A DNA stretch of 64,000 nucleotides, from NCBI GenBank assembly GCA_027919835.1, contig JANVFP010000011.1, forward strand, positions 186,001-250,000, given 5' to 3'. A program made the position numbers and the translations under genes. Origin of the DNA: Lentinula raphanica (taxonomy: Eukaryota > Basidiomycota > Agaricomycetes > Agaricales > Omphalotaceae). A model generated the notes under the pieces. The model did no database searches. It had not been told where the DNA came from and saw only the letters and a program-made list of their open reading frames with translations. Of this stretch, positions 999-64,000 are shown in pieces. Numbering within the stretch: position 1 is the first letter of the stretch; each line of letters begins with the position of its first letter.

Positions 999-2167
999 TC
1001 ACAAATGATGGCATCAGCCAAAATGATGAGATCTGCATCATTGATTTGCCTTTTTGGGAAAAAAAAGATTTATATTGAAACCAGGGGTCATGAGAGTGCA
1101 TATGAGTGTTTAAAAATAGGAAATATCATATAGGAAGCATATAGGGTATCCCAGGCACATCAAAGTTGTCTAAAAAGGAAATTGGTCTAAAATTAGAACT
1201 TGATCTCATCAGGTAGCAAAAAATCTGAAAAAACCATAAAAAATACTCAAAAAATTCAGGGTCGCCTCGTTGGCCCTGAAAACGCAAAATTTTAAAAAAT
1301 ACGCGACAAGTGTAAAAATTTTTATCACTCCAACACTGCATGCAGGGCCTCATAAGTTCCCGTAACATATGGGAAACTTGTCGGAAACAAGCGCGAAAAT
1401 TTGAGCGCATAAGATCTCGGACTTATTGGAAAACATATCCAAAACTTATGTGACATAAGTCCTGAATAAGCGAGAGAGGCTCAGACGAAACTCATTTAAT
1501 AGATATGGAATTTAATTTTCTTATAATCTTCACATAAGACCATTGGTCTTATGTGGTACTTCGATAATAATTTTGAAAAACTAGAAGGAAAAAAGACCAG
1601 ATCAGGGTCACATTTGAATGATTTTTTATTGTGGATTTCTATATTACTCATACGGAAACTCATAAGAACAAATAGAGAACTTATGTGACATGGTCACACA
1701 TAGAGGTCCAACAAGTGGTCCAAGAACGGCTGAACTTATGGAATTCTAATCGGTTGATTGTGATTCATGAGTACTCAAAAAGACCAGCACACCTATACGG
1801 AACTCCTGTAAGACTTATACGTTCCAGATTATAAACCTATGTGACATGGCGTCACAATACGGCCACTGACAAATTTGTATTCGGACCAAAAGTGATGCAG
1901 CGGCACAGCGGCACAGCGGCACAGCGACCGGCGATCGACTTTCCCGCGAATTTTTCTCGCTATATTTTTACATTTTTCGCATTCGCACGTCCTAACTTGC
2001 AGCTTGCGCGTTCATCGCGATTAATATTCGTGAACGTTTGTTCCTTTGTTCAACCATCATGGTCATAGCCTGCTCGGCGTTCGCACTCGCCCTTTGTTAG
2101 CATCTGCAGCTTCATAAGGACGTTAGTCTTGGGCTTCTCTTCTCATTTTCCCCACCTGCCTCTCAAA

Positions 2168-3509
2168 ATGCCTCCTCATCGTTTCGCTGTCATCACCAAG
2201 TTCGAGAATCCGAATACGACTACGCATGTCGTATATCCTGCTTTGCTTGACTCTTCGACTACTCGCAAGACCGCAGATGTGAACAGGTAAGATACTATCA
2301 ATATCCACTCGTCGTCGTTGCTCAAGAGTCCCTAGGACTCCTCATCATATGATCGTTTGTGGCGTTGTTGACCGCGACCCAGTGGCTCCACCCGGATTGA
2401 GAGAGAATGAGCGGACGATGGGCGAAGATCCTATCAATCAGTACGTGTATCAAACTCATGCATCTGCCCTTCGTACCCATACTTTCACAGAGGCACTGTG
2501 CACAACCTCGCTCTTCTGCACCAAGTCCCTATAGCTCGTGGCGAAGCTGAATTGGAATGCCACTTAGGAGATGCCATGGCTCCAAGCTCTCCAATCTCGG
2601 ACGTGGCTCCACATGTGTTGCATCAGAAGGAAAGCCAAACGGACAATGGGTTCATGAATCGGTACGTATATTCTACTCATCCTCTCGAACTTCGTACGAA
2701 AAGGCATCCAATGGTCAGGTATAACGTCGCTCAATCTCCGCGCCATGTCGCTGTCGGCGGATCTGCTTTGCAACCTCACGAGGATGAATCTATTTCTTGG
2801 GCCATCCGGTGAGTTCAGTGATTGCTTACTCTGATTATCCTAGCTCATACCATCTATCAGGACTCGTCGTCGAGTGGTTCGTCACAGTCCGTATCCCACC
2901 CGATCCAAATGTTCCACCCAATCTTCGCATACTTCACCCAATCAGACCTCGGTGTCGACGACTGCCCACTCTGAAGATGAGACTTCACTAACTTCATACG
3001 GACGCAATTCAACTTCGGCGGCGACTCCTTCTTCCGAAAGTCAGACTTCAGCACCATCACCCGCGATCGATACGCACATTGTCCAAGCCACGTTCCTCAC
3101 ACCGAGTGGTTTCGGCTATACCGCGTTTGACTACAATCAACGAAAGGTCCAAAATAAAAATGTCCATACTTCATGGTATACCTATACGACACCCGGCCCA
3201 ATCGACCATCCTCCTGAGCTCCCTCAAAACGCGGTAGGGCTTCAGCATAACGTCATCTTCATGCACATTAACGAAACAGAGAGGGCTAAGTATCAGAATG
3301 GCCACCGGCAGCTCTCTAACTTGCTCAAATACTGTATACGCATGTGGATTTGGGACGGTGTCTCTTCAAAGTGGGAGAAGATCTGTGTCGGGGAACGACG
3401 CGTAGTGGATGGTTACCGGCTTTCCCTCTCTCTTAGATATCTCAAAACCATACACCCGCAATGGGTCATTACCAAATCTCTGAAGAGGCTCATTGCAGAG
3501 AATTCTTGA
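2168..3509 (+). CDS. Arm-encoded hypothetical protein, left copy (377 aa, five exons)
   Basis: Function not recognised. Exons 2168-2286, 2336-2440, 2491-2661, 2719-2808 and 2861-3509 join in phase to 1134 nt with four introns of 49-57 nt, all GT..AG. The start is the ATG opening MPPHRFAVITKFEN. The middle is Ser/Thr/Pro-rich and probably disordered (about residues 165-220, with SPNQTSVSTTAHSEDE). The C-terminal ~150 residues look folded, with aromatic-rich patches such as SGFGYTAFDYNQ, MWIWDGVSSKWE and HPQWVITKSLKRL. No signal peptide or membrane segment is seen. The reading frame and every splice site survive in both arms, with one amino-acid difference noticed (His here, Arg on the right, in the NG-H/R-RQLSN stretch). 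That supports a genuine, recently duplicated or homogenised gene. It could be a lineage-specific orphan or a gene carried by a mobile element. Confidence 0.75.
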
Positions 3510-3958
3510 TTACCTAGTTCATCTAATATTACATCTTTATCACAATTGAATGTGTTTTTGAGGCTGTTCTCAGCTCTCTCCAACAGTAACCAAAAAAGCT
3601 TGACTAGCTATAGCCGTTTTCAAAGTCTACGAACAGTAACTGTGTTTATTGAAGTCCGAGAGAAGCGATAAGGAGCTTCTCTGAGGATAAGATAACGTGA
3701 GCTTCGAGATAACGTGTCGGAAATTTGATTGGGCCTCCATAATCGCTCAGTGATTGTCAGCAGATTAGATCCCGGTTATGACTGGGTTTTGAACCCAACC
3801 GGTAGATTAGATCCAATTATCAGAACAACTCATAGATTAGAGTCCATTCGGCAAACCTTGATATTGAACTTGACGTCGATCTTGATGCGGTAAGCTGTGG
3901 TCCAGTGCCCGAACCAGGATGGCGCAGTCACGTACAGTCACATCTGTGTTACTGTATC

Positions 3959-3998
3959 ACGGCTGTAACCCCATTTTGACGGCTGTAACCCCATTTTG
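3959..3998 (+). repeat. 20 bp tandem duplication present only in the left arm
   Basis: The unit ACGGCTGTAACCCCATTTTG occurs twice head to tail. The mirrored place in the right arm (about 59065-59090) has a single copy. It is one of the few clear indels between the arms and a convenient marker to tell them apart. Confidence 0.9.
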
Positions 3999-4413
3999 TG
4001 ATGCTCTGGAAGGGTCTGGACAACTGTGGAACTAATTTCGGACTTCTCCAACTCTCGGCTGAATATGCACAGCATCAGCTGGCACCAGTCCAAGAAATGG
4101 TCCGCTTTAAACTGCGTCAAGATCGACGTCGAGTCCGACATCAACCTTTGCCGAATGGACTCTTAGATGCGATTATGTATATTTGAACCAGATTATCATT
4201 CAATTATCACACGCTCATCAACTCCCTTCACTACCATCAACTCCCAACCTACCGTTGTTTTCTCTCATCATAGAATCAGCCACAACATACTCTATTTCTA
4301 GCAGACGCCCAGCCCCTCCTTAGGCAAGGTTCTGTTGGCTGCAAGCTAAATCCACACCTCTCTGCATCTGATCCTGGACAGTTTCTACACCACTCTTGCC
4401 TGCACCCATTTCA

Positions 4414-4734
4414 AAGTTAACATGATCATAGGTGACCAGCTCGCTATTGTCAAAGAATCTAGTCGTCGTCTTGGGACTCGATGATCACAGATACCCCGCA
4501 AAGGTTCTCAAGGATGGACCTGCTCACAGTGGCAAATATACTTCCCTCAATGAGATGATCATGGACGCCGCGCGCTCATGCAATGGTTTCGCTGGTGTGT
4601 TCCCAGAACACAGGTACAAGGTTATCAAGTGTCTCCAGGGTCTTGGTCATCCCTGCGCAATGACTGGCAGTGGTGCTAACAATGCTCCTGCTCTCTTGTG
4701 CCAATGTTGGTATCACCATCGAAGGCGCGACTAA
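4414..4734 (+). pseudogene. Plasma-membrane H+-ATPase (PMA1-type) fragment, left copy
   Basis: Translation gives a recognisable part of the cytoplasmic P/N region of a fungal P3A H+-ATPase: MIIGDQLAIVKESSRR, then in another frame GLDDHRYPAKVLKDG, NEMIMDA and FAGVFPEHRY, ending near the hinge motif. The gene is dead. A one-base frameshift lies at about 4465-4475, both Asp residues of the conserved TGDGxNDAPAL hinge are lost (it reads TGSGANNAPAL), and the fragment stops abruptly at 4734 where satellite DNA begins. No transmembrane part remains in this copy. The same frameshift and hinge changes occur in the right arm, so decay preceded the arm duplication or was homogenised. Confidence 0.9.
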
Positions 4735-7700
4735 GTAGGCCATTCCGAGCACATCTGTAACCATGCGGAGAGATAAAGATCAAAAATGACTAAGTAGGCC
4801 ATTCCGAGCACATATGTGACCCTGCAGAGATACCGAGATCGAAAGTGACTAAGTAGGCCATTCCAAGTACATCTGTGACCATGCGGAGAGATAAAGATCA
4901 AAAATGACTAAGTAGGCCATTCCGAGCACATATGGGACCCTGCAGAGATACCGAGATCGAAAGTAACTAAGTAGGCCATTCCAAGTACATCTGTGACCAT
5001 GCGGAGAGATAAAGATCAAAAATGACTAAGTAGGCCATTCCGAGCACATATGTGACCATGCGGAGAGATAAAGATCAAAAATGACTAAGTAGGCCATTCC
5101 GAGCACATATGTGACCCTGCAGAGATACCGAGATCGAAAGTGACTAAGTATGCCATTCCAAGCACATATGTGACCCTGCAGAGATACCGAGATCTAAAGT
5201 GACTAAGTAGGCCATTCCGAGCACATCTGTGACCCTGCAGATATACTGGGATCTAAAGTGACTAAGTAGGCCATTCTGAACACATATGTGACCCTGCAGA
5301 GATACCGAGATTGAAAGTGACTCATGTAGGCCATTCTGAGTACATCTGTGACCATGTGGAGAGATAGTGATCAAAAATAACTAAGTAGGCCATTCCGAGC
5401 ACATATGTGACCCTGCAGAGATACCGAGATCGAAAGTGACTCAGTGGGCCATTCTGAGTAACTGTACATCAGAGATAAAGATCAAAAATGACTAAGTAAG
5501 CCTTTTCGAGTATATATGTGACCCTGCAGATATACTGAGATCTAAAGTGACTAAGTAGGCCATTCCGAGCATATATGTGACCCTGCAGATATACTGAGAT
5601 CTAAAGTGACTAAGTAGGCCATTCCGAGCACATATGTGACCCTGCAGAGATACCAAGATCAAAAATGACTAAGTAGGCCATTCCGAGTACATATGTGACC
5701 CTGTGGAGACCAGGAGATCAGTAATGACTCAGTAGGTCATTCCGAGCACATATGTGACCCTGCAGAGATACTGAGATCGAAAGTGACTAAGTAGGCCATT
5801 CTGAGTACATCTGTAACCATGCAGAGCGATAAAGATCAAAAATAACTAAGTAGGCCATTCCAAGCATATATGTGACCCTGTGGAGATGTAGAGATCAGCA
5901 ATGACTCAGTAGGCCATTCCAAGCACATATGTGACCCAGCAGATATACCAAGATCAAGAATGACTCAGTAGGCCATTCTGAGTACTTATGCACTGCTGCG
6001 GAGATGCAGAGATCAAAAATGACTAAGTAGGCCATTGCAAGTACATCTGTGACCCTGTGGAGACATAGAGATCAGCAATGACTCAGTAGGCCATTCCAAG
6101 CACATATGTGACCCTGCAGAGATACCGAGATCTAAAGTGACTAGTAAGTAGGCCATTCCGAGCACATCTGTAACCATGCGGAGAGATAAAGATCGAAAGT
6201 GACTAAGTAGGCCATTCTGAGTACATCTGTGACCATGCGGAGAGATATAGATCAAAAATAACTAACTAAGCTTTTCCGAGTACAGAGATAAAGATCAAAA
6301 AGAACTAAGTAGGCCATTCTGAGCATATATGTGACCCTGTGGAGACATAGAAATTAGCAATAACTCAGTAGGCCATTCCAAGCACATATGTGACCCTGCA
6401 GAGATACCAAGATTGAAAGTGACTAAGTAGGCCATTCCGAGCACATATGTGACCCTGCAGATATACCAAGATCAAGAATGACTCAGTAGGCCATTCCAAG
6501 TACTTATGCACTGCTTCGGAGATGCAGAGATCAAAAATGACTAAGTAGGCCATTGCAAGTACATCTGTGACCCTGTGGAGACATAGAGATCAGCAATGAC
6601 TCAGTAGGCCATTCTGAGCACATATGTGACCCTGCAGAGATACCAAGATCAAAAATGACTAAGTAGGCCATTCCGAGCACATATGTGATCCTGTGGAGAC
6701 CTAGAGATTGGCCATGACTCAGTAGGCCATTCCGAGCACATTTGTGACCCTGCAGAGATACCAAGATCGAAAGTAACTAAGTAGGCCATTCCAAGTACAT
6801 CTGTGACCATGTGGAGAGATAAAGATCACAAATGACTAAGTAGGCCATTCCGAGCATATATGTGACCCTGTGGAGACATAGAGATCAGCAATGACTCAGT
6901 AGGCCATTCCGAGCACATATGTGACCCTGCAGAGATACCAAGATCGAAAGTGACTAAGTAGGCCATTCTGAGTACATCTGTGACCATGCGGAGAGATAGT
7001 GATCAAAAATGACTAAGTAGGCCATTCCAAGCATATATATGACCCTGCAGATATACTGAGATCTAAAGTGACTAAGTAGGCCATTCTGAGCATATCTGTG
7101 ACCCTGCAGAGATACCAAGATCAAAAATGACTAAGTAGGCTATTCAATAACTAAGTAGGCCATCCCGAGCATTTATGTGACCCTGCAGATATACTGGGAT
7201 CTAAAGTGACTAAATAGGCCATTCCGAACACATATGTGACCCTGCAGAGATACCGAGATAGAAAGTGACTAAGTGGGCCATTCTGAGTACATCTGTGACC
7301 ATGCGGAGAGATAAAGATCAAAAATAACTAAGTAGGCCATTCCAAGCACATATGTGACCCTGCAGAGATACCGAGATCAGCAATGACTCAGTAGGCCATT
7401 CCAAGCACATATGTGATCCTGCAGAGATACCGAGATCAGAAGTGACTAAGTAAGCCATATGCAGAGAGATAGAGGTCAAAAATAACTGAGTAGGCCATTT
7501 CGAGCACATATGTGACCCTGCAGAGGTACCGAGATCGAAAGTGACTCAGTGAGCCATTCTGAGTACATCTGTGATCATGCGGAGAGATAAAGATCAAAAA
7601 TAATGAAGTAGGCCATTCTGAGCATTTATGTGACCCTGCAGATATACTGGGATCTAAAGTGACTAAGTAGGCCATTCTGAACACATATGTGACCCTGCAG

Positions 7701-8590
7701 AGATACCGAGATTGAAAGTGACTCATGTAGGCCATTCTGAGTACATCTGTGACCATGTGGAGAGATAGTGATCAAAAATAACTAAGTAGGTCATTCCAAG
7801 CACATATGTGACCCTGCAGAGATACCGAGATTGAAAGTGACTCAGTGGGCCATTCCGAAAACATCTGTGACCCTGTGGAGACATAGAGATCAGCAATGAC
7901 TCAGTAGGCCATTCAGAGCACATATGTGACCCTGCAGAGATACCGAGATCGAAAGCGACTCAGTACGCCATTCTGGGTACATTTGTGACCATGCAGAGAG
8001 ATAGTGATCAAAAATGACTAAGTAAGCCATTCCAAGCATATATATGACCCTGCAGATATACTGAGATCTAAAGTGACTAAGTAGGCCATTCCGAGCACAT
8101 CTGTGACCATGCGGTCACAATAGAGATCAAAAATAACTAAGTAGGCCATTCCGAACACATATGTGACCCTGCAGAGATACCGAGATTGAAAGTGACTAAG
8201 TGGGCCATTCTGAGTACATCTGTGACCATGCGGAGAGATAAAGATCAAAAATAACTAAGTAGGCCATTCCAAGCACATATGTGACCCTGCAGAGATACCG
8301 AGATCAGCAATGACTCAGTAGGCCATTCCGAGCACATATGTGACCCTGCAGAGATACCGAGATCAAAAGTGACTAAGTAAGCCATTCTGGGTACATTTGT
8401 GACCATGCGGAGAGATAGTGATCAAAAATAACTAAGTAGGCCATTCCAAGCATATATGTGACCCTGCAGATATACTGAGATCTAAAGTGACTAAGTAGGC
8501 CATTCCGAGCACATATGTGACCCTGCAGAGATACCGAGATCAAAAGTGACTAAGTAGGCCATTCTGAGTACATCTGTAACCATGCGAAGA
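4735..8590 (+). repeat. Left ~59 bp satellite array (about 65 units)
   Basis: Tandem units of about 59 bp begin GTAGGCCATTCCGAGCACAT. At least four monomer types interleave, told apart by the part after TGTGACC: type A CTGCAGAGATACCGAGATCG, type B ATGCGGAGAGATAAAGATCA, type C CTGTGGAGACATAGAGATCA, and a rarer type D containing GCTGCGGAGATGCAGAGATC. A/B alternation gives a ~118 bp higher-order unit in places. Type A carries a PstI site (CTGCAG). Because 59 is not a multiple of 3, every frame yields spurious repetitive ORFs; none is a gene. The unit count comes from array length divided by period. Confidence 0.97.
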
Positions 8591-8635
8591 GATAGAAACG
8601 GATAGGGTAGAAAACGTTATCTGCAGCAATATATA

Positions 8636-8873
8636 TACTGTCTTTCTATGTATGGAGGCGACGGTCACGGTCACATTCGACCCGTTGCGTTGCCTATTTT
8701 GCATGATGTGATGACCAAAAAAGGCATGTTGCCTCCCTTTTGGCCATGACATTGGTGGAAAATGGCCCAAAATTGGGTCCGGTTGCCTATGTCACGGTCA
8801 AAAACTTCTCCGTCGCCTATCAAACAACCGTGATGCACACGTGACCGTCACCTCCGTACATAAAAAGACAGTA
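8636..8873. mobile_element. Palindromic MITE, ~238 bp, inner edge of left satellite
   Basis: Terminal inverted repeats of about 35 bp start TACTGTCTTTCTATGTATGG on the left. On the minus strand from the right they start TACTGTCTTTTTATGTACGG. TA dinucleotides flank both ends. The interior keeps partial dyad symmetry (GGCCATGACATTGGTGGAA against GGTTGCCTATGTCACGGTC). A diverged relative of equal length lies at 57750-57988. Mariner/Tc1-like non-autonomous behaviour is an inference from the TA ends. Confidence 0.8.
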
Positions 8874-10612
8874 TATTCTTATCAAACCTGTGCCCAAAAC
8901 TGCAGCTGGATGTCCCGCAACTGCAAAACTCATCGTAGTTGTTCACATGGCCGCTATCTACCACTCCAACAGTACATAGTACTATGTGAATAGCTCCCCA
9001 GTAGACCTGGCACACTCCTACACATTGGGAATTTCTCATATGTCACAGCACCAGCTACCACTAAACCGTCGGCGTGGTGCCGTAGCCTGCTAGCAAGAGA
9101 CTGAGGGACCCCCATGCTCGGATTTTTTAAAGTCCGCCTGGTGTGCTGGTTGCAGCCGGTTATCATGGATAGATAAGATTAGGTGCTACATATATATCAG
9201 TTTGTATTGGAAACGATGAGGTCTGATAACACCAGCATGAGCGACTCTGATTCTGAAGGCTCCGATCTCCACTACAGAGATGACACAATAGCCTTCTGAA
9301 GCTTTACAGTCTACAGATCCCCTGCAACACATAATTATGGATATTGTGGGGTAAACGAGGGCAAATTGAGGTCCAGATTAGATCTTGGAGTTAAGTATTG
9401 AAAGAGAGACTAAGTAGGAGGAGAGCCAGAGTGAAGCCTGTCCCCCATTCACATATCATAAGGCATGAAGTTGAACGAAGGTACTTAGACGATGATTTTG
9501 AAAGACATTGACAACGCAAAAATGTGCGATTGACATTTCACGTGAGGATATCCATGACTCATATGCTCGGAATCCTTCCGGCATCACGTCGGAGTTTCAA
9601 AAATCCAAGCATGGGGGTCCCTCAGTCCCTTGCAACCAGGCTGTTATTCAACGAACGTGTTTACTCTTCGTTGAACTATCTGACTGGCTAGTGAGGCTAG
9701 TTACTTTATCGTGTCACGTGGTGGGGAAACTCAACCCTGTCCAAATCGGTCTTACCGGAATAATTCGGTCAAAAAGGTACCGGTCGGGCGTGGGACCCCT
9801 GCTCATGAAGCCTATCGTCTGGAATTTAATTTTCCGTGTCTCACTTGCACTTCATCCTCAACTCTCATACCGCAGCTCCCATTTATCACCAATCTCACGA
9901 TACTCAGTGACTTTCAGAACTCACACCTTGCGAACACAAGATCCCTACAGCACCGCAGCCAGGACTTATATATGCGAAGATGAAGTTGCGTACACATATC
10001 CTTAAGGTAACACAGTCTGCAATCTACATTATCTTCAGTCTGATTGTGAATTCCTTGATCATCTCAAGCTCTCTGTCTACTGTCTCATGGCTCTCGACAC
10101 CGGGAAAATACTCGCAGGCAATGTGACATCGCAATGGTTATCATCGGACTCTTGTTTTTGTTGTGAGTGACTCCGACTTGGTTTTCCAGATGTCTACGCA
10201 TCCTCAGTTATCTGACAAAGTCCTCACGGTTCGAACGCAGCTTGTGAGATTGATTCATAGTGTGCTGTCAAGCTTTGGAAAGAGATTAGAGACTCGATCA
10301 CCTTCAGTTTCGATTTGGCCAAGGAAAATGTAAACTATGCATGTATTCTTTGAAACCTCTACTCATATTTATGAACACCAGGTGTCCTTCCTATGCCCCG
10401 CATTCACTGATCCTGAAGCGAAACTACCTACGACTTCAACGGCTAAGTTAAAGCCAAGTTCAAGCACGCCCAATGTGACCAATGACACGTGATGAAATTG
10501 CACAAAGGCCTTTCATACTTTCCGCCTCCTGCATCTTCGTTCTCTCTTACTTCCTCGATCTTTTGTTACTCTTCGCTAGCATCCTCTCCACAGATTTTGT
10601 CCGCATCCAGTC
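8874..10612. other. Gene-poor interval with an inverted repeat pair
   Basis: No convincing gene. Stretches at 9080-9134 and 9592-9645 are inverted copies of each other, roughly 85% alike over 50 bp around GCATGGGGGTCCCTCAGTC. They frame ~460 bp with no coding signal and may be the ends of an old non-autonomous element. A 165-codon open frame at 9508-10005 spans the second copy and has no coding-like composition. The remainder up to the F-box gene (10010-10612) is ordinary intergenic DNA with a CT-rich stretch just before the start codon, as often seen in fungal promoters. Confidence 0.5.
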
Positions 10613-13083: not shown

Positions 13084-13306
13084 TGCCCAGACGTGTATAA
13101 TCTTACAGACTTTACTGTCCAATGTATTAGCTATATCATATTGCATCTCAATAATTTTTCAATCGCGATGCCCATCAACCCGCGCAGCTAGTGCCACTTA
13201 GTGGTATGGTGTTCGTTATCGTTCCTACACGTGCGATAACTTAAGCGACGGTCAGAAAGAAATTGAAACATTCCGAATCCTTGATCGATTTTCATACTCC
13301 CCCTCC

Positions 13307-14752: not shown

Positions 14753-15425
14753 TGTGCCATGGCACAAAGTTCAACTGTATCATCATCTTTCCTCGGAGTA
14801 GTACGCTACTTCTAGCCTCATGCTTGTACTGTCCATGAGCTCCATTATGCAAATAGATGACTGACTCTTCGAGCATCTTCTACCTTCAACGAACCCTGTT
14901 GAGATCCTAGACTCTAGACTGTGCAGCCTAGGATATGAACTAGAGTACTAGTAGGTTTTTCGTAGCATGCCGGGAGGCTCAGGCTCAGGCCCACTAAAAC
15001 CCCTAGGTTCTACATGCAGCATGTTGGACAGTCGAAGACTGGAACATAGTGGGTCTAAGGACAAATGAGTAGTACTTCTATCGTTTTTCCTGTGTCTCTG
15101 ATTCGCTTTCATCCAGTTTCACCGGCCTTGTTACTGTCAATCCAAACAAAGACATCAAACAAACGGATTTTCGAATGACTACTTAGTACTCGCGAAGCGA
15201 AAAGTGAAGAATGCGGCACAGCCCACTCCCCCGCGCGACACTGAACGCTTGCCAATAGTACAGAACTTACAATACTTCATTATAACCCGTTCAGTCTCGT
15301 ATAGGTTCAGAGAATTCAGAATACCTACGAAAACTACTCATCTTGATGATCTCTGCCTAGAGCTGCCTAGATACCGTAGGTACATAGTAATGTATTTGGA
15401 CAAGAACCCAGACTAACGTGCCTAT
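14753..15425. other. Intergenic interval, nothing recognised
   Basis: This is the 3' side of both the F-box gene (plus strand) and the SUN gene (minus strand). A CTAG-rich patch (ACTAGAGTACTAGTAGG at about 14940-14956) and GGCTCAGGCTCAGGCCC are seen. A 70-codon open frame at 15204 has no supporting features. Confidence 0.5.
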
Positions 15426-42298: not shown

Positions 42299-44040
<1,742 letters not shown>

Positions 44041-50056: not shown

Positions 50057-50559
50057 TGTCAGAATGAATGTGGAGACTGGCAAATGCATTGTTTAATATC
50101 ATTGGGGACTTCATATATTTGAGCATGCAGTGAAAGCTGGTGAGAGGCGGTGAGGCTTGAGAGATGCTCAATTCTGCCCGCGAGGGTATTGGCAGCCCTT
50201 GGATAAAAACTGAGTCCCAGTGGAAACCGGACATGCACATTTCGGTACAAATTAGCCCAAAAAGGCTTGAATCGGCTGAGATTGGCTTGTTTCGGCTGAC
50301 TTCATTCTGGCCTCCATTTTCACTTGCATCTGTACAACCAGAGTCTTGAAAAAGCAAAGAATCAATCACAGTCAGCCCACGATGCTCACGAGTGAGCCGG
50401 TGAGTCCAGATATCATCTTACACTCATCCCAACCTCATTAATGATATGGTACACTACAGAAACATGACAATCAAATCTAATTAAAAGGAATGGGTGGAAG
50501 CCCAGGTTACAAATGACGGAAAGCAAAACAATGATGTGAGCAATACTGCAGAGTCAGTG
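50057..50559. other. Spacer between the WD40-like gene and the right satellite
   Basis: About 500 bp without a gene. A short triplicated motif GGCTTGAATCGGCTGAGATTG / GGCTTGTTTCGGCTGA is at 50265-50300. No inverted similarity to the left inner border was noticed, so satellite DNA is the innermost part of each arm. Confidence 0.5.
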
Positions 50560-53500: not shown

Positions 53501-56500
53501 TACTTAGTCATTTTTGATCTTTATCTCTCTGCATGGTCACAGATGTACTCGTAATGGCTTACTTAGTCACTTTCGATCTTGGTATCTCTGCAGGGTCACA
53601 TATGTGCTCGGAATGGCCTACTTAGACATTTTTTTATCTTTATCTCTCCGCATGGTCACAGATGTACTTGGAATGGCCTACTTACTCACTTTTGATCTCG
53701 GTATCTCTGCAGGGTCACATATATGCTCGGCTACTTAGTCATTTTTTATCTTTATCTCTCCGCATGGTCACAGATGTGCTCGGAATGGCCTACTTAGTCA
53801 CTTTCGATCTCGGTATCTCTGCAGGGTCACATATATGCTCAGAATGGCCTACTTAGTCATTTTTGATCTTTATCTCTCCGCATGGTCACAGATGTATTTG
53901 GAATGGCCTACTTAGTCACTTTCGATCTCGGTATCTCTGCAGGGTCACATATATGCTCGGAATGGCCTACTTAGTCACTTTAGATCTCAGTATATCTGCA
54001 GGGTCACATATATGCTCAGAATGGCCTACTTAGTCATTTTTGATCTTTATCTCTCCGCATGGTCACAGATGTACTCGTAATGGCTTACTTAGTGACTTTC
54101 GATCTTGGTATCTCTGCAGGGTCACATATGTGCTCGGAATGGCCTACTTAGTCATTTTTGATCTTTATCTCTCCGCATGGTCACATATATGCTCGGAATG
54201 GCCTACTTAGTCACTTTTGATCTCGGTATCTCTGCAGGGTCACATATATGCTGGGCTACTTAGTCATTTTTGATCTTTATCTCTCCGCATGGTCACAGAT
54301 GTATTTGGAATGGCCTACTTAGTCACTTTTGATCTCAGTATATCTGCAGGGTCACATATATGCTCGGAATGGCCTACTTAGTCACTTTTGATCTCGGTAT
54401 CTCTGCAGGGTCACATATATGCTGGGCTACTTAGTCATTTTTGATCTTTATCTCTCCGCATGGTCACAGATGTATTTGGAATGGCCTACTTAGTCACTTT
54501 TGATCTCAGTATATCTGCAGGGTCACATATATGCTCGGAATGGCCTACTTAGTCACTTTAGATCTCAGTATATCTGCAGGGTTACATATATGCTCAGAAT
54601 GGCCTACTTAGTCACTTTAGATCTCAGTATCTCTGCAGGGTCACATATATGCTTGGAATGGCTTACTTAGTCATTTTTGATCTTTATCTCTCCGCATGGT
54701 CACAGATGTACTTGGAATGGCCTACTTAGTCACTTTCAATCTCGGTATCTCTGCAGGGTCACATATATGCTCGGAATGGCCTACTTAGTCACTTTAGATC
54801 TCAGTATCTCTGCAGGGTCACATATATGCTTGGAATGGCTTACTTAGTCATTTTTGATCTTTATCTCTCCGCATGGTCACATATATGCTCGGAATGGCCT
54901 ACTTAGTCACTTTAGATCTCAGTATCTCTGCAGGGTCACATATATGCTTGGAATGGCTTACTTAGTCATTTTTGATCTTTATCTCTCCGCATGGTCACAG
55001 ATGTATTTGGAATGGCCTACTTAGTCACTTTTGATCTCAGTATATCTGCAGGGTCACATATATGCTCGGAATGGCCTACTTAGTCACTTTCAATCTCGGT
55101 ATCTCTGCAGGGTCACATATATGCTCGGAATGGCCTACTTAGTCACTTTAGATCTCAGTATATCTGCAGGGTCACATATATGCTCAGAATGGCCTACTTA
55201 GTCATTTTTGATCTTTATCTCTCCGCATGGTCACATATATGCTCGGAATGGCCTACTTAGTCACTTTTGATCTCGGTATCTCTGCAGGGTCACATATATG
55301 CTCGGCTACTTAGTCATTTTTGATCTTTATCTCTCCGCATGGTCACAGATGTACTTGGAATGGCCTACTTAGTCACTTTCGATCTTGGTATCTCTGCAGG
55401 GTCACATATATGCTCGGAATGGCCTACTTAGTCATTTTTGATCTTTATCTCTCCGCATGGTCACCATTTTTGATCTTTATCTCCGCATGGTCACATATAT
55501 GCTTGGAATGGCCTACTTAGTCACTTTTGATCTCGGTATCTCTGCAGGGTCACATATATGCTCGGAATGGCTTACTTAGTCATTTTTGATCTTTATCTCT
55601 CCGCATGGTCACAGATGTACTTGGAATGGCCTACTTAGTCACTTTCGATCTCAGTATATCTGCAGGGTCACATATATGCTCAGAATGGCCTACTTAGTCA
55701 TTTTTGATCTTTATCTCTCCGCATGGTCACAGATGTACTTGGAATGGCCTACTTAGTCACTTTCGATCTTGGTATCTCTGCAGGGTCACATATATGCTCG
55801 GAATGGCCTGCTTAGTCATTTTTGATCTTTATCTCTCCGCATGGTCACCATTTTTGATCTTTATCTCCGCATAGTCACATATATGCTTGGAATGGCCTAC
55901 TTAGTCACTTTTGATCTCGGTATCTCTGCAGGGTCACATATATGCTCGGAATGGCTTACTTAGTCATTTTTGATCTTTATCTCTCCGCATGGTCACAGAT
56001 GTACTTGGAATGGCCTACTTAGTCACTTTCGATCTCAGTATATCTGCAGGGTCACATATATGCTCAGAATGGCCTACTTAGTCATTTTTGATCTTTATCT
56101 CTCCGCATGGTCACAGATGTACTTGGAATGGCCTACTTAGTCACTTTCGATCTTGGTATCTCTGCAGGGTCACATATATGCTCGGAATGGCCTACTTAGT
56201 CATTTTTGATCTTTATCTCTCCGCATGGTCACAGATGTACTTGGAATGGCCTACTTAGTCACTTTCGATCTTGGTATCTCTGCAGGGTCACATATATGCT
56301 CGGAATGGCCTACTTAGTCATTTTTGATCTTTATCTCTCCGCATGGTCACAGATGTGCTCGGAATGGCCTACTTAGTCATTTTTGATCTTTATCTCCGCA
56401 TGGTCACATATATGCTTGGAATGGCCTACTTAGTCACTTTTGATCTCGGTATCTCTGCAGGGTCACATATATGCTCGGAATGGCTTACTTAGTCATTTTT

Positions 56501-57745
56501 GATCTTTATCTCTCCGCATGGTCACAGATGTACTTGGAATGGCCTACTTAGTCACTTTCGATCTCAGTATATCTGCAGGGTCACATATATGCTCAGAATG
56601 GCCTACTTAGTCATTTTTGATCTTTATCTCTCCGCATGGTCACAGATGTACTCGTAATGGCTTACTTAGTGACTTTCGATCTTGGTATCTCTGCAGGGTC
56701 ACATATGTGCTCGGAATGGCCTACTTAGTCATTTTTGATCTTTATCTCTCCGCATGGTCACATATATGCTCGGAATGGCCTACTTAGTCACTTTTGATCT
56801 CGGTATCTCTGCAGGGTCACATATATGCTCGGCTACTTAGTTATTTTTGATCTTTATCTCTCCGCATGGTCACAGATGTACTTGGAATGGCCTACTTAGT
56901 CACTTTCGATCTCAGTATATCTGCAGGGTCACATATATGCTCAGAATGGCCTACTTAGTCATTTTTGATCTTTATCTCTCCGCATGGTCACAGATGTGCT
57001 CGGAATGGCCTACTTAGTCACTTTAGATCTCAGTATATCTGCAGGGTCACATATATGCTCGGAATGGCCTACTTAGTCATTTTTTATCTTTATCTCTCCG
57101 CATGGTCACAGATGTACTTGGAATGGCCTACTTAGTCACTTTCAATCTCGCTATCTCTGCAGGGTCACATATATGCTCGGAATGGCCTACTTAGTCACTT
57201 TAGATCTCAGTATATCTGCAGGGTCACATATATACTTGGAAAGGCTTACTTAGTCATTTTTGATCTTTATCTCTGATGTACTCAGAATGGCCCACTGAGT
57301 CACTTTCGATCTCAGTATCTCTGCAGGGTCACATATGTGCTTGGAATGGCCTACTTAGTCATTTTTGATCACTATCTCTCCGCATGGTCACAGATGTACT
57401 TGGAATGGCCTACTTAGTCACTTTCAATCTTGGTATCTCTGCAGGGTCACATATGTGCTCGGAATGGCCTACTTAGTCATTTTTGATCACTATCTCTTCG
57501 CAGGGTTACAGATGTACTCAGAATGGCCTACTGAGTCACTTTCAATCTTGGTATCTCTGCAGGGTCACAGATGTACTCGGAATGGCATACTTAGCCACTT
57601 TTGACCTCTGCATCTCTGCAGCAGCACATACTATGTACTTGGAATGTTGTACATCATCATTTTGTATCTCTGTGTCTCCACAAGGTCGCAGATGTACTCA
57701 GAATGGCTTACATAGTCACTTTTGACCTCTGTGTCTCTGCTGTAG
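50560..57745 (-). repeat. Right ~59 bp satellite array (about 120 units), inverted
   Basis: Same monomers as the left array but in reverse orientation (read on the plus strand as TCTGCAGGGTCACATATGTG and CTCGGAATGGCCTACTTAGT). The inner third (50.56-52.3 kb) mixes types A, B, C and D like the left array. From 52.3 to 57.3 kb it is mostly alternating A/B with strong homogenisation. Several longer higher-order blocks recur, for example segments with the truncated unit CATGGTCACCATTTTTGATC at about 55460 and 55843 (~383 bp apart), and units with the deletion GCTCGGCTACTTAG or GCTGGGCTACTTAG at least six times. All ORFs here are satellite artefacts. Confidence 0.97.
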
Positions 57746-57749
57746 CACA

Positions 57750-57988
57750 TGCTGTCCCTCTGTGTATGGACGCAATGATCACATGCATGTTACAATTGAT
57801 TAATAGGCAACGGAGAAAATTTTGGCCATGACATAGGTGACCGGAACCAATTTTGGCTCATTTTCTCCTTATGTCATGGCCAGAAGGGAAGCTACCAGCC
57901 ATTTTTGGACTGTGACATCACACAAAATAGTCACCACAACAGGTCAATTGTGGCTGTAACCATTGCCTCCATTCACAAAAGGACAGTA
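57750..57988. mobile_element. Palindromic MITE, ~239 bp, outer edge of right satellite
   Basis: Ends TGCTGTCCCTCTGTGTATGG on the left and, on the minus strand from the right, TACTGTCCTTTTGTGAATGG, both followed by a GCAATG block. The interior contains GGCCATGACATAGGTGACCG, matching the MITE at 8636-8873. One partial satellite unit (about 58000-58018) lies outside it, so it was inserted into, or recombined within, the array. Confidence 0.75.
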
Positions 57989-58018
57989 TGTCCTCAGCGG
58001 AATGGCCTACTTAGTCAA

Positions 58019-58640
58019 TGGGTGGGATACACACAGTACATGGAAACCAAAACTGGAATGTCTGCAAAAACAAACATGGTGGTACCGCTATTGAGAATAG
58101 CGATGATAAGAACCATGAAGGGAGAGAAGTTGAATTGGTAGACCCAGGGTGAGAATGGCAAAGCAGACGACAATACAGATGGTGACCGCACAAGCATAGA
58201 TAGGCTATTTTCTCATACATTGGAAGATGATATGAGAACCATAAACAGCATGCACAATGGTTGAAAGACCAGTTTCAGTAAGGACAATGTCAGCAGCCCA
58301 CGAACAATGTCAGTGGCGCCTTCGATGGTGATACCAACATTGGCACAAGAGAGCAGGAGCATTGTTAGCACCACTGCCAGTCATTGCGCAGGGATGACCA
58401 AGACCCTGGAGACACTTGACAACCTCGTACCTGTGTTCTGGGAACACACCAGCGAAACCATTGCATGAGCGTGTGGCGTCCATGATCATCTCATTGAGGG
58501 AAGTATATTTGCCACTGTGAGCAGGTCCATCCTTGAGAACCTTTGCGGGGTATCTGTGGTCACCGAGTCCCAAGACGACGACTAGATTCTTTGACAATAG
58601 CGAGCTGGTCACCTGTGATCATGTTAACTTCGAAATGGGT
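58019..58640 (-). pseudogene. Plasma-membrane H+-ATPase (PMA1-type) fragment, right copy
   Basis: Mirror copy of 4414-4734 but longer at its 3' side. After the damaged hinge it continues with DIVLTETGLSTIVHAVYG and then SHIIFQCMRK, and, past an in-frame stop where the N-Y-S of NYSIYAC is expected, PIYACAVTICIVVCFAIL and FSPFMVLIIAILNSGTT (transmembrane helices M5-M6). It shares the frameshift and TGSGANNAPAL changes of the left copy. It ends at about 58019 in a single satellite unit. The left copy lacks the ~300 bp downstream of the hinge, so the left arm probably suffered a deletion joining GGCGC-ACT to a satellite GACTAAGTAGG. Confidence 0.9.
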
Positions 58641-59536
58641 GCAGGCAAGAGTGGTGTAGAAACTGTCCAGGATCAGATGCAGAGAGGTGTGGAATGAGAT
58701 TGCAGCCAACAGAACCTTGCCTAAGGAGGGGCTGGGCGTCTGCTAACTGCTTCAAAGAATGTGATTAGAAATAGAGTATGTTGTGGCTGATTCTATGATG
58801 AGAGAAAACAACGGTAGGTTGGGAGTTGATGGTAGCGGAGGGAGTTGATGAGCGTGTGATAATTGAATGATAATCTGGTTCAAATATACATAATCGCATC
58901 TAAGAGTCCGTTCGGCAAAGGTTGATGTTGGACTCGACGTCGATCTTGACGCAGTTTAAAGCGGACCGTTTCTTGGACTGGTGCCAGCCAATGCTGTGCA
59001 TATTCAGCCGAGAGTCGGAGAAGTCCGAAATTAGTTCCACAGTTGTCCAGACCCTTCCAGAGCATCACAAAATGGGGTTACAGCCGTGATACAGTAACAC
59101 AGATGTGACTGTACGTGACCGCGCCATCCCGGTTCGGGCACTGGACCACAGCTTACCGCATCAAGATCGACGTCAAGTTCAATATCAAGGTTTGCCGAAC
59201 GGACTCTAATCTATGAGTTGTTCTGATGATTGGATCTAATCTACTGGTTGGGTTCAAAACCCGGTCATAACCGGGATCTAATCTGCTGACAATCACTGAG
59301 CGATTATGGAGGCCCAATCAAATTTCCGACACATTATCTCGAAGCTCACGTTATCTTATCCTCAGAGAAGCTCCTTATCGCTTCTCTCGGACTTCAATAA
59401 ACACAGTTACTGTTCGTAGACTTTGAAAACGGCTATAGCTAGTCAAGCTTTTTTGGTTACTGTTGGAGAGAGCTGAGAACAGCCTCAAAAACACATTCAA
59501 TTGTGATAAAGATGTAATATTAGATGAACTAGGTAA

Positions 59537-60878
59537 TCAAGAATTCTCTGCAATGAGCCTCTTCAGAGATTTGGTAATGACCCATTGCGGGTGTATGGTT
59601 TTGAGATATCTAAGAGAGAGAGAAAGCCGGTAACCATCCACTACGCGTCGTTCCCCGACACAGATCTTCTCCCACTTTGAAGAGACACCGTCCCAAATCC
59701 ACATGCGTATACAGTATTTGAGCAAGTTAGAGAGCTGCCGGCGGCCATTCTGATACTTAGCCCTCTCTGTTTCGTTAATGTGCATGAAGATGACGTTATG
59801 CTGAAGCCCTACCGCGTTTTGAGGGAGCTCAGGAGGATGGTCGATTGGGCCGGGTGTCGTATAGGTATACCATGAAGTATGGACATTTTTATTTTGGACC
59901 TTTCGTTGATTGTAGTCAAACGCGGTATAGCCGAAACCACTCGGTGTGAGGAACGTGGCTTGGACAATGTGCGTATCGATCGCGGGTGATGGTGCTGAAG
60001 TCTGACTTTCGGAAGAAGGAGTCGCCGCCGAAGTTGAATTGCGTCCGTATGAAGTTAGTGAAGTCTCATCTTCAGAGTGGGCAGTCGTCGACACCGAGGT
60101 CTGATTGGGTGAAGTATGCGAAGATTGGGTGGAACATTTGGATCGGGTGGGATACGGACTGTGACGAACCACTCGACGACGAGTCCTGATAGATGGTATG
60201 AGCTAGGATAATCAGAGTAAGCAATCACTGAACTCACCGGATGGCCCAAGAAATAGATTCATCCTCGTGAGGTTGCAAAGCAGATCCGCCGACAGCGACA
60301 TGGCGCGGAGATTGAGCGACGTTATACCTGACCATTGGATGCCTTTTCGTACGAAGTTCGAGAGGATGAGTAGAATATACGTACCGATTCATGAACCCAT
60401 TGTCCGTTTGGCTTTCCTTCTGATGCAACACATGTGGAGCCACGTCCGAGATTGGAGAGCTTGGAGCCATGGCATCTCCTAAGTGGCATTCCAATTCAGC
60501 TTCGCCACGAGCTATAGGGACTTGGTGCAGAAGAGCGAGGTTGTGCACAGTGCCTCTGTGAAAGTATGGGTACGAAGGGCAGATGCATGAGTTTGATACA
60601 CGTACTGATTGATAGGATCTTCGCCCATCGTCCGCTCATTCTCTCTCAATCCGGGTGGAGCCACTGGGTCGCGGTCAACAACGCCACAAACGATCATATG
60701 ATGAGGAGTCCTAGGGACTCTTGAGCAACGATGACGAGTGGATATTGATAGTATCTTACCTGTTCACATCTGCGGTCTTGCGAGTAGTCGAAGAGTCAAG
60801 CAAAGCAGGATATACGACATGCGTAGTCGTATTCGGATTCTCGAACTTGGTGATGACAGCGAAACGATGAGGAGGCAT
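59537..60878 (-). CDS. Arm-encoded hypothetical protein, right copy (377 aa, five exons)
   Basis: Mirror of 2168-3509. Predicted exons 60878-60760, 60710-60606, 60555-60385, 60327-60238 and 60185-59537, same 1134 nt and identical splice motifs. One amino-acid difference was noticed (NGRRQLSN here). No lesion. Function not recognised; see the left copy for the domain description. Two intact, nearly identical, oppositely oriented copies about 56 kb apart argue for recent duplication, gene conversion, or selection on the protein. Confidence 0.75.
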
Positions 60879-61712
60879 TTTGAGAGGCAGGTGGGGAAAA
60901 TGAGAAGAGAAGCCCAAGACTAACGTCCTTATGAAGCTGCAGATGCTAACAAAGGGCGAGTGCGAACGCCGAGCAGGCTATGACCATGATGGTTGAACAA
61001 AGGAACAAACGTTCACGAATATTAATCGCGATGAACGCGCAAGCTGCAAGTTAGGACGTGCGAATGCGAAAAATGTAAAAATATAGCGAGAAAAATTCGC
61101 GGGAAAGTCGATCGCCGGTCGCTGTGCCGCTGTGCCGCTGTGCCGCTGCATCACTTTTGGTCCGAATACAAATTTGTCAGTGGCCGTATTGTGACGCCAT
61201 GTCACATAGGTTTATAATCTGGAACGTATAAGTCTTACAGGAGTTCCGTATAGGTGTGCTGGTCTTTTTGAGTACTCATGAATCACAATCAACCGATTAG
61301 AATTCCATAAGTTCAGCCGTTCTTGGACCACTTGTTGGACCTCTATGTGTGACCATGTCACATAAGTTCTCTATTTGTTCTTATGAGTTTCCGTATGAGT
61401 AATATAGAAATCCACAATAAAAAATCATTCAAATGTGACCCTGATCTGGTCTTTTTTCCTTCTAGTTTTTCAAAATTATTATCGAAGTACCACATAAGAC
61501 CAATGGTCTTATGTGAAGATTATAAGAAAATTAAATTCCATATCTATTAAATGAGTTTCGTCTGAGCCTCTCTCGCTTATTCAGGACTTATGTCACATAA
61601 GTTTTGGATATGTTTTCCAATAAGTCCGAGATCTTATGCGCTCAAATTTTCGCGCTTGTTTCCGACAAGTTTCCCATATGTTACGGGAACTTATGAGGCC
61701 CTGCATGCAGTG

Positions 61713-63668
61713 CAAATCATACCAGATCCTCTATACATTGAGTATATATGATGTACATGCTATTTTTAGCACCCCTAGTACACTCAGACACTCAGAATGG
61801 CTTATATCATTCAATATATTCAGTACACTCAATGCTTATTATACTTAACACACTTAACAATGAAAAAACTCGGAATAGTAGTAATGCATATTATACTCAA
61901 CACACTCAACAATGAAAAACCTCAAAACAGTGTTCATGTGTATTATACTTAACACACATAACACACTTAACAATGAAAAAACTCGGAATAGTAGTAATGT
62001 ATATCATACTCAACACACTCAACAATGAAAAACCTCGAAACAGTGTTCATGTGTGTTATACTCAACACACATAATGCACTTAACAATGAAAACTCTCAGA
62101 ACAGTGTCCATGTGTATTATACTTAACATACTCAACACACTTAACAATGAAAAAACTCAGAACAGTGTTCATGTGTGTTATAACACACTTCATCAATCAA
62201 TATAACATACTTAACAATCAAAACTCGGAGTAGTGTTATCACAAATTATACTTAACACACTTCATCAGTAAGTATAACATACCTTCAATAGGACATTGTT
62301 ATACTATAACACACTTATAACAATGAGTTTTGGGCGCTTATGGGCGCTTATTTGGGGTTTTTGAGTCGAAATTCATTAATAGTACACTCAATAATTTTTG
62401 TATGGGCTCTATATTGTGTCAGGATGTTGTCTATATCATATTCCTCTAGATATAATTCAGAGAACTCAAAAATACAACCTGTGTGGCTAGCTATACTATA
62501 ATCTTTTGGAATATAACAGTGTGTCATGTAAATGACAGTGCATACACCCATGTTATGAAGTCAAACTGCTGCTGGGTCATGAAAAGAGTCATCCTACAAC
62601 CTATTTGATGCTAACTCTATGTGATACAGCCAAGAGATCTGTAATGGGGGTTATTGAATATGACATCTATTGTTACATGTAAGTGTAGACATCTATAGTG
62701 TACATGAAACATGTACATGTGTATCACAGAGTCCAACCTTTATGATAGCTATCTGAATCATGTACAGACACTGCCAGTAGACTGTAGGAGTGCTTTCTTG
62801 ATGGACCAGCATCAGTATACTTGCATTACATGGACATATGCATTGGCATTTACATAAAACACTGTTATATGACAAAAGATTATAGTATAGCTAGCCACAC
62901 AGGTTGTATTTTTGAGTTCTCCGAATTATATCTAGAGGAATATGATATAGACAACATCCTGACACAATATAGAGCCCATACAAAAATTATTGAGTGTACT
63001 ATTAATGAATTTCGACTCAAAAACCCCAAATAAGCGCCCATAAGCGCCCAAAACTCATTGTTATAAGTGTGTTATAGTATAACAATGTCCTATTGAAGGT
63101 ATGTTATACTTACTGATGAAGTGTGTTAAGTATAATTTGTGATAACACTACTCCGAGTTTTGATTGTTAAGTATGTTATATTGATTGATGAAGTGTGTTA
63201 TAACACACATGAACACTGTTCTGAGTTTTTTCATTGTTAAGTGTGTTGAGTATGTTAAGTATAATACACATGGACACTGTTCTGAGAGTTTTCATTGTTA
63301 AGTGCATTATGTGTGTTGAGTATAACACACATGAACACTGTTTCGAGGTTTTTCATTGTTGAGTGTGTTGAGTATGATATACATTACTACTATTCCGAGT
63401 TTTTTCATTGTTAAGTGTGTTATGTGTGTTAAGTATAATACACATGAACACTGTTTTGAGGTTTTTCATTGTTGAGTGTGTTGAGTATAATATGCATTAC
63501 TACTATTCCGAGTTTTTTCATTGTTAAGTGTGTTAAGTATAATAAGCATTGAGTGTACTGAATATATTGAATGATATAAGCCATTCTGAGTGTCTGAGTG
63601 TACTAGGGGTGCTAAAAATAGCATGTACATCATATATACTCAATGTATAGAGGATCTGGTATGATTTG
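61713..63668. mobile_element. Full-length fold-back (hairpin) element, ~1.95 kb
   Basis: The element is one long palindrome. Ends CAAATCATACCAGATCCTCT and its reverse complement; every landmark mirrors about 62690.5 (for example 62348 with 63033). Outer arms (61713-62550 and 62830-63668) are nearly perfect; the inner ~250 bp is a diverged palindrome. Each arm carries six or so ~60 bp sub-repeats (AACACACTTAACAATGAAAA, ACTCGGAATAGTAGTAATG or CAGTGTTCATGTGTATTATA) and a 67-70 codon open frame ending CTINEFRLKNPK, in both orientations. The empty site in the left arm (at about 1331) reads CTGCATGCAGTG-TTG-GAGTG on the minus strand, so the net insertion is 1953 bp with no target-site duplication seen. 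No transposase. Confidence 0.92.
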
Positions 63669-64000
63669 GAGTGATAAAAATTTTTACACTTGTCGCGTAT
63701 TTTTTAAAATTTTGCGTTTTCAGGGCCAACGAGGCGACCCTGAATTTTTTGAGTATTTTTTATGGTTTTTTCAGATTTTTTGCTACCTGATGAGATCAAG
63801 TTCTAATTTTAGACCAATTTCCTTTTTAGGCAACTTTGATGTGCCTGGGATACCCTATATGCTTCCTATATGATATTTCCTATTTTTAAACACTCATATG
63901 CACTCTCATGACCCCTGGTTTCAATATAAATCTTTTTTTTCCCAAAAAGGCAAATCAATGATGCAGATCTCATCATTTTGGCTGATGCCATCATTTGTGA

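What the first reader, a model, noticed from the sequence alone, without database searches (positions are those of the whole stretch)
999..64000. A ~63 kb island bounded by giant inverted repeats, each ending internally in an inverted satellite array
Both flanks carry the same modules in mirror order (AT-rich DNA, intact 377-aa gene, dead H+-ATPase fragment, 59 bp satellite) around ~42 kb of unique DNA. Mirrored coordinates are constant (sum 63046) over ~2.2 kb. Such arms could drive inversion polymorphism of the interior, form stem-loops or isochromosome-like rearrangements, or be the termini of a very large mobile or subtelomeric unit. I know of no described fungal element with this arm plan.
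Basis: partly seen in the sequence, partly recalled or inferred. Interest (0 to 1): 0.9.

Follow-up and report, generated by a model that had tools for sequence, protein, structure and literature searches.

The report
Giant gene-carrying CACTA transposon in mushroom
The mirror-image arms are the two ends of a 60-kilobase jumping gene in a probable relative of shiitake; it carries around ten gene-like stretches, has two sister copies elsewhere in the same genome, and is three to four times larger than the members of its transposon superfamily named in the papers I could see.

Summary
The arms are real, but the island is two nested things. Window 1334-61712 (60,379 bp) is a DNA transposon of the EnSpm/CACTA superfamily: CACTG...CAGTG ends, a 3-bp target-site duplication (CAA), and a tnp2 (Transposase_21) gene with D-D-E, C(2)C and H(3)H motifs. 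Its ~3.4-kb terminal inverted repeats (TIRs) each hold a 377-aa gene. Outside lies a separate dispersed palindrome into which it jumped; the palindrome's undamaged mirror arm keeps the exact empty site (120/120 bases, one CAA). Two more copies (65,368 and 64,147 bp) sit at unrelated sites of the same 49-Mb genome, each with its own 3-bp duplication; the 27-bp terminus occurs six times, all at these ends. The genome is very probably Lentinula raphanica. The interior carries ORFs shared by the copies (SUN, F-box, WD-like, unnamed; lowest dN/dS 0.10-0.19) and a ~6-kb patchwork of truncated host genes (MCM, RINT1, Rpb3-like). The inverted satellites are element-specific and look like oversized transposase-binding subterminal repeats (inferred). 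Verdict: CACTA by every feature tested with a clear result, but 3-4 times the largest EnSpm named in the papers seen; a new variant of a known kind.

The parts
1334..61712 (.). complete giant EnSpm/CACTA element, 60,379 bp
   Evidence: CACTG...CAGTG ends, 3-bp TSD, empty site, two further full-length copies
1331..1333 (.). left target-site duplication CAA
61713..61715 (.). right target-site duplication CAA
1334..4732 (+). left terminal inverted repeat
58312..61712 (-). right terminal inverted repeat
2168..3509 (+). TIR gene, left copy: 5 exons, 377 aa; homologues found only in Lentinula
59537..60878 (-). TIR gene, right copy (mirror coordinates; last exon seen open)
4432..4731 (+). plasma-membrane H+-ATPase gene fragment, left
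58313..58618 (-). plasma-membrane H+-ATPase gene fragment, right (by arm match)
4729..8594 (+). left subterminal satellite, 59-bp unit
50552..57740 (-). right subterminal satellite, 59-bp unit, inverted
26891..31825 (-). tnp2 transposase gene region (Transposase_21 in ORF 29486-31825; H(3)H and E motifs in ORF 26891-28312; exons not modelled)
10580..12887 (+). F-box gene region with counterparts in all 3 copies
13202..14749 (+). weakly F-box-like ORF with counterparts in all 3 copies
15429..16844 (-). SUN (Sad1/UNC)-domain ORF, also in the C19 copy and a C21 relic, not in C4
17041..22652 (-). three unnamed ORFs (144, 851, 935 aa) with counterparts in all 3 copies
24863..26241 (+). unnamed gene region with counterparts in all 3 copies (one in-frame stop in C19 and C4)
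32177..41913 (.). block shared mainly with the C19 copy; contains a second F-box gene region (36107-38645 +) and partly decayed ORFs
42235..48348 (.). captured host DNA: MCM and RINT1 fragments (42344-46028, from C18) between C31-derived pieces with an Rpb3/Rpb11-domain fragment
48741..49843 (+). WD-like (weak) gene region with counterparts in 3 copies and a C21 relative
791..1333 (.). outer part of left arm of the host palindrome (target of insertion, not part of the element)
61713..64000 (.). rest of host palindrome, continuing ~0.2 kb beyond window; 63606-63725 holds the intact empty-site sequence

Best explanation
Window 1334-61712 is a full-length EnSpm/CACTA cut-and-paste transposon. Shown: it was inserted here with a 3-bp duplication, and two sister copies with the same ends sit elsewhere. 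Inferred: a DDE transposase of the tnp2 family (gene region 26891-31825) cuts at the CACTG/CAGTG ends and inserts the element. The ~3.4-kb inverted arms are its terminal inverted repeats, each carrying the same 377-aa gene read inward, and they are kept alike by homogenisation within each element. The inverted 59-bp (or 108-bp) satellites are its subterminal repeats; I infer that they are binding-site arrays used to bring ends 60 kb apart together, with the TIR-encoded protein the first candidate for binding them. The interior is the element's own gene set plus cargo, including a patchwork of truncated host genes of the kind attributed to faulty gap repair.
For: Same termini and plan at three sites: C11 60,379 bp, C4 65,368 bp, C19 64,147 bp. 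No match at E 1e-10 between the fetched outer flanks of C4 (8.4 and 6.2 kb) and C19 (6.3 and 9.6 kb). 3-bp TSD in 3 of 3: CAA, AAA (in an A-run), GTC. Terminal 27-mer found 6 times in 49 Mb with up to 3 mismatches, all at these ends, control 0. Mirror arm of the palindrome equals left flank + right flank minus one CAA, 120/120. Transposase_21 E 2.6e-19; VDGF, CDLPA, CSMC (C(2)C), then HMMLH (H(3)H) and PFERFN in a further large ORF on the same strand, in that order. dN/dS C11 v C19: transposase residues 270-780 0.10; ORF 17041 0.10; 25573 0.11; 11936 0.15; SUN residues 256-472 0.19. In C4/C19 arms 12 substitutions separate the elements with both arms concordant, 0 separate left from right across elements, 13 are private to one arm. 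The satellite core has 135 matches in the genome and 135 in this window. C18 holds MCM N-terminal/OB domains and the start of the RINT1 match, missing from the element.
Against: No transposition was observed and one assembly was examined; activity is inferred. The C11 copy may be defective: I built no full transposase gene model, so the H(3)H and E motifs are placed in the same gene only by strand and order; DUF4218 (recalled as a usual partner of tnp2) matched at E 0.027, below its cut-off. Satellite binding is inference: the 59- and 108-bp units share a 19-column core whose score 11 of 1000 base-composition shuffles reached. dN/dS near 0.3 is not diagnostic, because antisense ORFs overlapping other ORFs gave 0.30-0.48, and some short ORFs exceed 1 (23674-23910: 1.76); so the TIR gene (0.29 for its last exon), F-box-like ORF (0.34) and the 851/935-aa ORFs (0.39-0.51) are weakly supported by this test. 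Several ORFs, 25573-26241 among them, have in-frame stops in C19/C4. The model of the TIR protein was poor (pLDDT 40.7).
Confidence: 0.93

Rival explanations
1. Segmental duplication or assembly palindrome: the arms are a duplicated host segment in inverted orientation, or an artefact.
For: Mirror similarity also exists outside 1334/61712, and palindromes of that kind are dispersed in this genome. No reads were available.
Against: Three copies with identical termini, unrelated flanks (C4 v C19), TSDs and an intact empty site; arms differ in bases and satellite length.
Confidence: 0.02
2. Composite transposon: two small elements (the arms) in inverted orientation came to mobilise the DNA between them, so the unit is an accident and not an element in its own right.
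For: Each arm has an outer terminus and its own gene; a single arm gene lies near a tnp2 gene at C21:471942-483649.
Against: No extra terminus in the genome (6 of 6 belong to the three elements). Besides the six arms, one search lists four pieces on C21, eight short pieces (at most 127 bp) elsewhere and two within the C11 arms, none a whole arm. The transposase is in the interior, not the arms, and interior blocks are shared between C11 and C19/C4 at 67-85% DNA identity, so the whole looks inherited as one unit.
Confidence: 0.04
3. A Starship-like tyrosine-recombinase element or an integrated virus that happens to have long inverted ends.
For: Size and cargo resemble Starships (eight of 42-606 kb are reported from the basidiomycete Tremella fuciformis, PMC13066641, passages seen).
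Against: The only DUF3435 match found in the genome is on C3, not in any copy; none of 48 distinct window ORFs scanned (of 120 listed) matches a viral capsid, polymerase or packaging family; the ends and TSD are CACTA-type.
Confidence: 0.02

Closest known systems
EnSpm/CACTA DNA transposons (fungal EnSpm: 5'-CAC..GTG-3' ends, 3-bp TSD; PMC12730594, outline and passages seen)
   Same: Terminal motif, 3-bp TSD, tnp2/Transposase_21 DDE transposase with C(2)C and H(3-4)H motifs, subterminal repeats
   Different: 60-65 kb; TIRs of ~3.4 kb or more that each encode a gene (subterminal repeats of CACTA elements are put at several hundred nucleotides in PMC8978399, passage); kilobase satellites; a large shared gene set
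Enlarged EnSpm of the red alga Chondrus crispus, 16-20 kb with 4-5 ORFs (PMC6431247, passage) and of Ectocarpus, up to 15.2 kb (PMC12477816, passages)
   Same: EnSpm superfamily, oversized, extra genes
   Different: About one quarter to one third of the size; no gene-bearing TIRs or inverted satellites mentioned in the passages seen
[quoted passage not shown] part of the abstract)
   Same: Capture of host gene fragments; satellite inside the element near an end
   Different: There the satDNA array was close to the 3' end; here inverted arrays lie at both ends of all three copies, with an inward-pointing motif
[quoted passage not shown]
   Same: Large DNA transposons with accessory genes
   Different: Different superfamily; about half the size
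Teratorn, 41-182 kb, a herpesvirus joined to a piggyBac-like transposase, in fish (PMC6431247, passage)
   Same: Giant element moved by a transposase; [quoted passage not shown]
   Different: piggyBac-like, 18-bp TIRs, viral gene content; none of that found here
Starships (tyrosine-recombinase giant elements of fungi; PMC13066641, passages)
   Same: Tens to hundreds of kb, many carried genes
   Different: No DUF3435 recombinase here; tnp2 transposase, long TIRs and 3-bp TSD instead

Membership tests
EnSpm/CACTA | CAC...GTG (CACTA/CACTG) termini | tested here: met
   CACTGCATGCAGGGCC... at 6 of 6 ends
EnSpm/CACTA | 3-bp target-site duplication | tested here: met
   CAA, AAA (in an A-run), GTC in 3 of 3 copies; empty site for C11
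EnSpm/CACTA | tnp2-type transposase | tested here: met
   PF02992 E 2.6e-19, 69.7 bits over cut-off 28.6
EnSpm/CACTA | C(2)C and H(3-4)H motifs between second D and last E (CMC group) | tested here: met
   CSMC; HMMLH then PFERFN; read by eye, across two ORFs without a spliced gene model
EnSpm/CACTA | subterminal repeats bound by transposase proteins | tested here: inconclusive
   inverted arrays present in 3 of 3 copies with inward CCATT[AC]CGA motif; binding not testable
EnSpm/CACTA | placement in a transposase tree beside EnSpm rather than Plavaka/ESTA | not tested
   no tree built; Transposase_21 was the only profile listed for that ORF at E 0.01
Starship | DUF3435 tyrosine recombinase captain | tested here: not met
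   1 match in genome, on C3, none in the copies
TET/JBP-bearing fungal transposons | TET/JBP dioxygenase gene inside the element | tested here: not met
   28 matches in genome, 0 within the three copies

The most novel reading that the evidence does not exclude
Lentinula harbours an autonomous lineage of 60-kb-class DDE 'mega-CACTA' elements, a basidiomycete counterpart of Starships. Their TIR-encoded protein reads the satellite arrays to synapse ends 60 kb apart, and their shared SUN, F-box and WD-like genes serve the element itself, for example by placing it at the nuclear envelope or altering protein turnover during dikaryon or meiotic nuclear events so that it is transmitted, while host genes are picked up as cargo.
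Probability: 0.25. Interest if true: 0.9.

Novelty: new variant of a known kind. Interest (0 to 1): 0.74.

Why it matters
PMC6431247 (passage) states that DNA transposition drops significantly above 6 kb of cargo, though 100-200 kb cargoes have been moved in artificial constructs. Here three 60-65-kb CACTA copies with matching ends and target-site duplications sit in one fungal genome. They offer a natural case for asking how ends 60 kb apart are paired, what a gene duplicated inside both TIRs does, and how blocks of host genes can move in fungi without a Starship recombinase. Such TIRs may be collapsed in less contiguous assemblies (one close homologue of the TIR gene is known only from a 2.2-kb contig), so the class could be widely missed.

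Tried and rejected
Inversion polymorphism between copies: rejected, since whole elements C4 and C19 simply point opposite ways on arbitrarily oriented contigs. Allelic haplotypes C4/C19: rejected, no flank match. Starship: rejected. TET/JBP-type element: rejected. Virus: no hallmark family among 48 scanned ORFs of 120. Fold of the TIR protein: pLDDT 40.7, so no fold search was run. PDB sequence searches with the transposase exon and with ORF 11936-12685 gave nothing useful. Homologue searches with the 935-aa ORF gave 1 protein and with the transposase exon 2, all Lentinula; in both only the ~8,000 candidates sharing most words were scored. The replaced block of the C4 copy: 6.9 kb of its ~10.9 kb was searched (C4:1710001-1716900); most of it matches repeats on C27/C28 at 98-100% and more copies at 66-75%, so it looks like a nested repeat rather than captured genes.
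Full report
Where it lies. The window is C11:186001-250000 of a 49.06-Mb, 75-contig assembly. A homologue of the arm gene named C8R42DRAFT_644439 [Lentinula raphanica] is recorded with a longest contig of 1,110,691 bases, exactly the length of contig C19 here. The genome is therefore very probably that L. raphanica strain (Agaricales, Omphalotaceae); this rests on one length match and is an inference.

The observation. The arms at 1334-3978 and 59068-61712 match gaplessly with 10 mismatches in 2,645 bases and extend with two length differences to 1334-4732 / 58312-61712. 61713-63668 has no counterpart on the left, and when 1334-61712 is left out the flanks form one 3.05-kb palindrome, which belongs to a dispersed repeat: 40 of 569 candidate places were scored, giving 100 matches, both strands and the window itself included.

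The three copies. Searching the genome with the arm gave two further inverted pairs, on C4 and C19. Of the other 14 of 20 rows, four are on C21, eight are short pieces of at most 127 bp elsewhere and two lie in the C11 arms. Comparison of fetched regions shows three elements of 60,379, 65,368 and 64,147 bp whose similarity ends at the same terminal base. C4 and C19 are 94.5-99.3% identical in the three long interior blocks that they share; C11 shares blocks with them at 67-84%, and one 773-bp block with C19 at 85%. At E 1e-10 no C4 flank matches a C19 flank; C11's outer flanks have two short matches (37 and 311 columns) to the interiors of C4 and C19. All six ends read CACTGCATGCAGGGCC inward, and each copy is bordered by the same three bases on both sides: CAA, AAA, GTC. 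The AAA case lies in an A-run, so its length is ambiguous. The 27-bp end pattern occurs six times in the genome with up to 3 mismatches; the reversed-pattern control gives 0.

The empty site. Because the C11 copy jumped into one arm of a palindrome, the other arm keeps the sequence from before the insertion. Left flank plus right flank minus one CAA equals the mirror arm over 120 of 120 bases; keeping both CAA forces a 3-base gap. This shows insertion with duplication of CAA.

The enzyme. The ORF 29486-31825 (-) matches Transposase_21 (tnp2), E 2.6e-19. It reads VDGF, CDLPA and CSMC, and the ORF 26891-28312 further along the same strand reads HMMLH and PFERFN. These fit the D, D, C(2)C, H(3-4)H, E order that PMC12730594 gives for EnSpm and relatives (passages). 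I read the motifs by eye, modelled no exons and built no tree. In the genome the C4 and C19 copies match the first ORF at 92% over their longer piece and 72-78% over the rest; C21 matches at 62% and 37% in one place, and at 57-60% in two short pieces of another, which carry stops. The remaining matches of the 49 listed are 39% or less.

The gene in the arms. Spliced across four introns it gives 377 aa. All 15 homologues found (E up to 1e-3) are from Lentinula species, 35-93% identical. Fourteen of them (the much longer P0016 left out) align with a conserved C-terminal part that has invariant tryptophans and glycines. dN/dS between C11 and C19 for its last exon is 0.29. The structure prediction was poor.

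The satellites. C11 has 59-bp units, C4 and C19 mainly 108-bp units whose two halves align locally (no control). The two kinds share TAGG-CCATT-CGA-CACA, a score that 11 of 1000 base-composition shuffles reached. The short motif CCATT[AC]CGA points inward from both ends in all three copies: counts left/right are 22/50, 41/51 and 41/28, including two stray matches in C4 and one in C19. A 31-bp core has 135 matches with up to 3 mismatches in the genome (100 listed, all on C11) and 135 in this window, so it is confined to this copy. Subterminal repeats are a normal part of CACTA elements (PMC8978399, passage), so I read these as an enlarged form; binding is not shown.

How the arms stay alike. 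In the C4 and C19 arms, counting substitutions only, 12 columns distinguish the elements with left and right concordant, 13 are private to one arm, and 0 are shared by the same side of both elements. So left and right arms appear to have been homogenised within each element lineage; gene conversion is the usual explanation (recalled).

The interior. Of the ORFs compared with C19 and C4, strongly constrained ones are the transposase (0.10), 17041-17472 (0.10), 25573-26241 (0.11), 11936-12685 (0.15) and the SUN ORF (0.19). The 851- and 935-aa ORFs gave 0.39-0.51. Antisense ORFs overlapping another ORF gave 0.30-0.48, and a few short ORFs exceeded 1 (23674-23910: 1.76), so values near 0.3 carry little weight. 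Named families are F-box (10895-11188, 36496-36816), weak F-box-like (13202-14749), SUN (supported by solved SUN2 structures) and weak WD-like hits below cut-offs (48741-49843). The SUN ORF matches only C11, C19 and a place on C21. Some shared ORFs contain in-frame stops in C19 and C4, which may be introns or decay.

Captured host genes. Window 42344-46028 is 97.7-99.1% identical to C18:814245-817827, and 46085-48348 is 94.8-96.2% identical to pieces of C31:483519-486746, with small C31-like pieces (91% and 95%) on either side of the C18 part. C18 keeps the MCM N-terminal and OB domains and the start of the RINT1 match that the element lacks, so C18 is the likely donor; completeness of the C18 and C31 genes was not tested further. 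The element copy is truncated, has a 101-bp duplication, and lacks 887 and 68 bp that are present at C31. Such patchwork fits filler DNA from gap repair (recalled; PMC8978399 cites a described mechanism for captures without naming it in the passage seen); here it is inference.

A fourth relative. C21:471942-483649 carries diverged transposase, arm-gene, WD-like and other ORFs in one cluster, with a single arm gene; further pieces lie at C21:558-563, 574 and 592-595 kb. I could not fetch the rest.

Against the literature. The listings (top rows only, e.g. 20 of 98 and 12 of 1,380) showed no paper on such elements in Lentinula or on a CACTA element of this size; they cover open-licence PMC papers only. 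I saw passages of five papers and one outline, none whole. The largest EnSpm named there are 16-20 kb (Chondrus, PMC6431247) and 15.2 kb (Ectocarpus, PMC12477816); KDZ elements of 30-32 kb are called among the largest DNA transposons, while Teratorn, a virus-transposon fusion, reaches 182 kb (PMC6431247). Repbase and subscription papers were not searchable, so the size claim is limited to these sources.

Verdict. The structure is an EnSpm/CACTA transposon by every feature tested with a clear result. Size, gene-bearing TIRs, paired satellites and the multi-gene interior make it a new variant. Insertion is shown; transposase activity, satellite function and the roles of the carried genes are inferred.

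Noticed in passing
window 61713-64000 and C11:186791-250208 minus the element: A 3-kb near-perfect palindrome with internal 52/61/113-bp tandem repeats is a dispersed repeat family (100 matches with 40 of 569 candidates scored); no coding domain was looked for.
   Followed up: partly
C21:470000-600000 (L037, L038, L007): Cluster of diverged relatives of the giant element, with two arm genes in the same orientation ~114 kb apart, transposase pieces, SUN gene and inverted 31-bp repeat arrays at 483891-484216 and 489410-489688.
   Followed up: partly
C4:1706082-1717005: An ~11-kb block replaces the C19 block; most of the searched part (C4:1710001-1716900) is 98-100% identical to repeats on C27 and C28, apparently another large repeat nested in the giant element.
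   Followed up: partly
C3:1683013-1683561: Single DUF3435 (Starship-captain-type) match in this genome, E 4.9e-12.
   Followed up: no
C29:171815-172474: A 48% identical relative of the element gene at window 25573-26241, outside the three copies; may be a host gene or part of another element.
   Followed up: no
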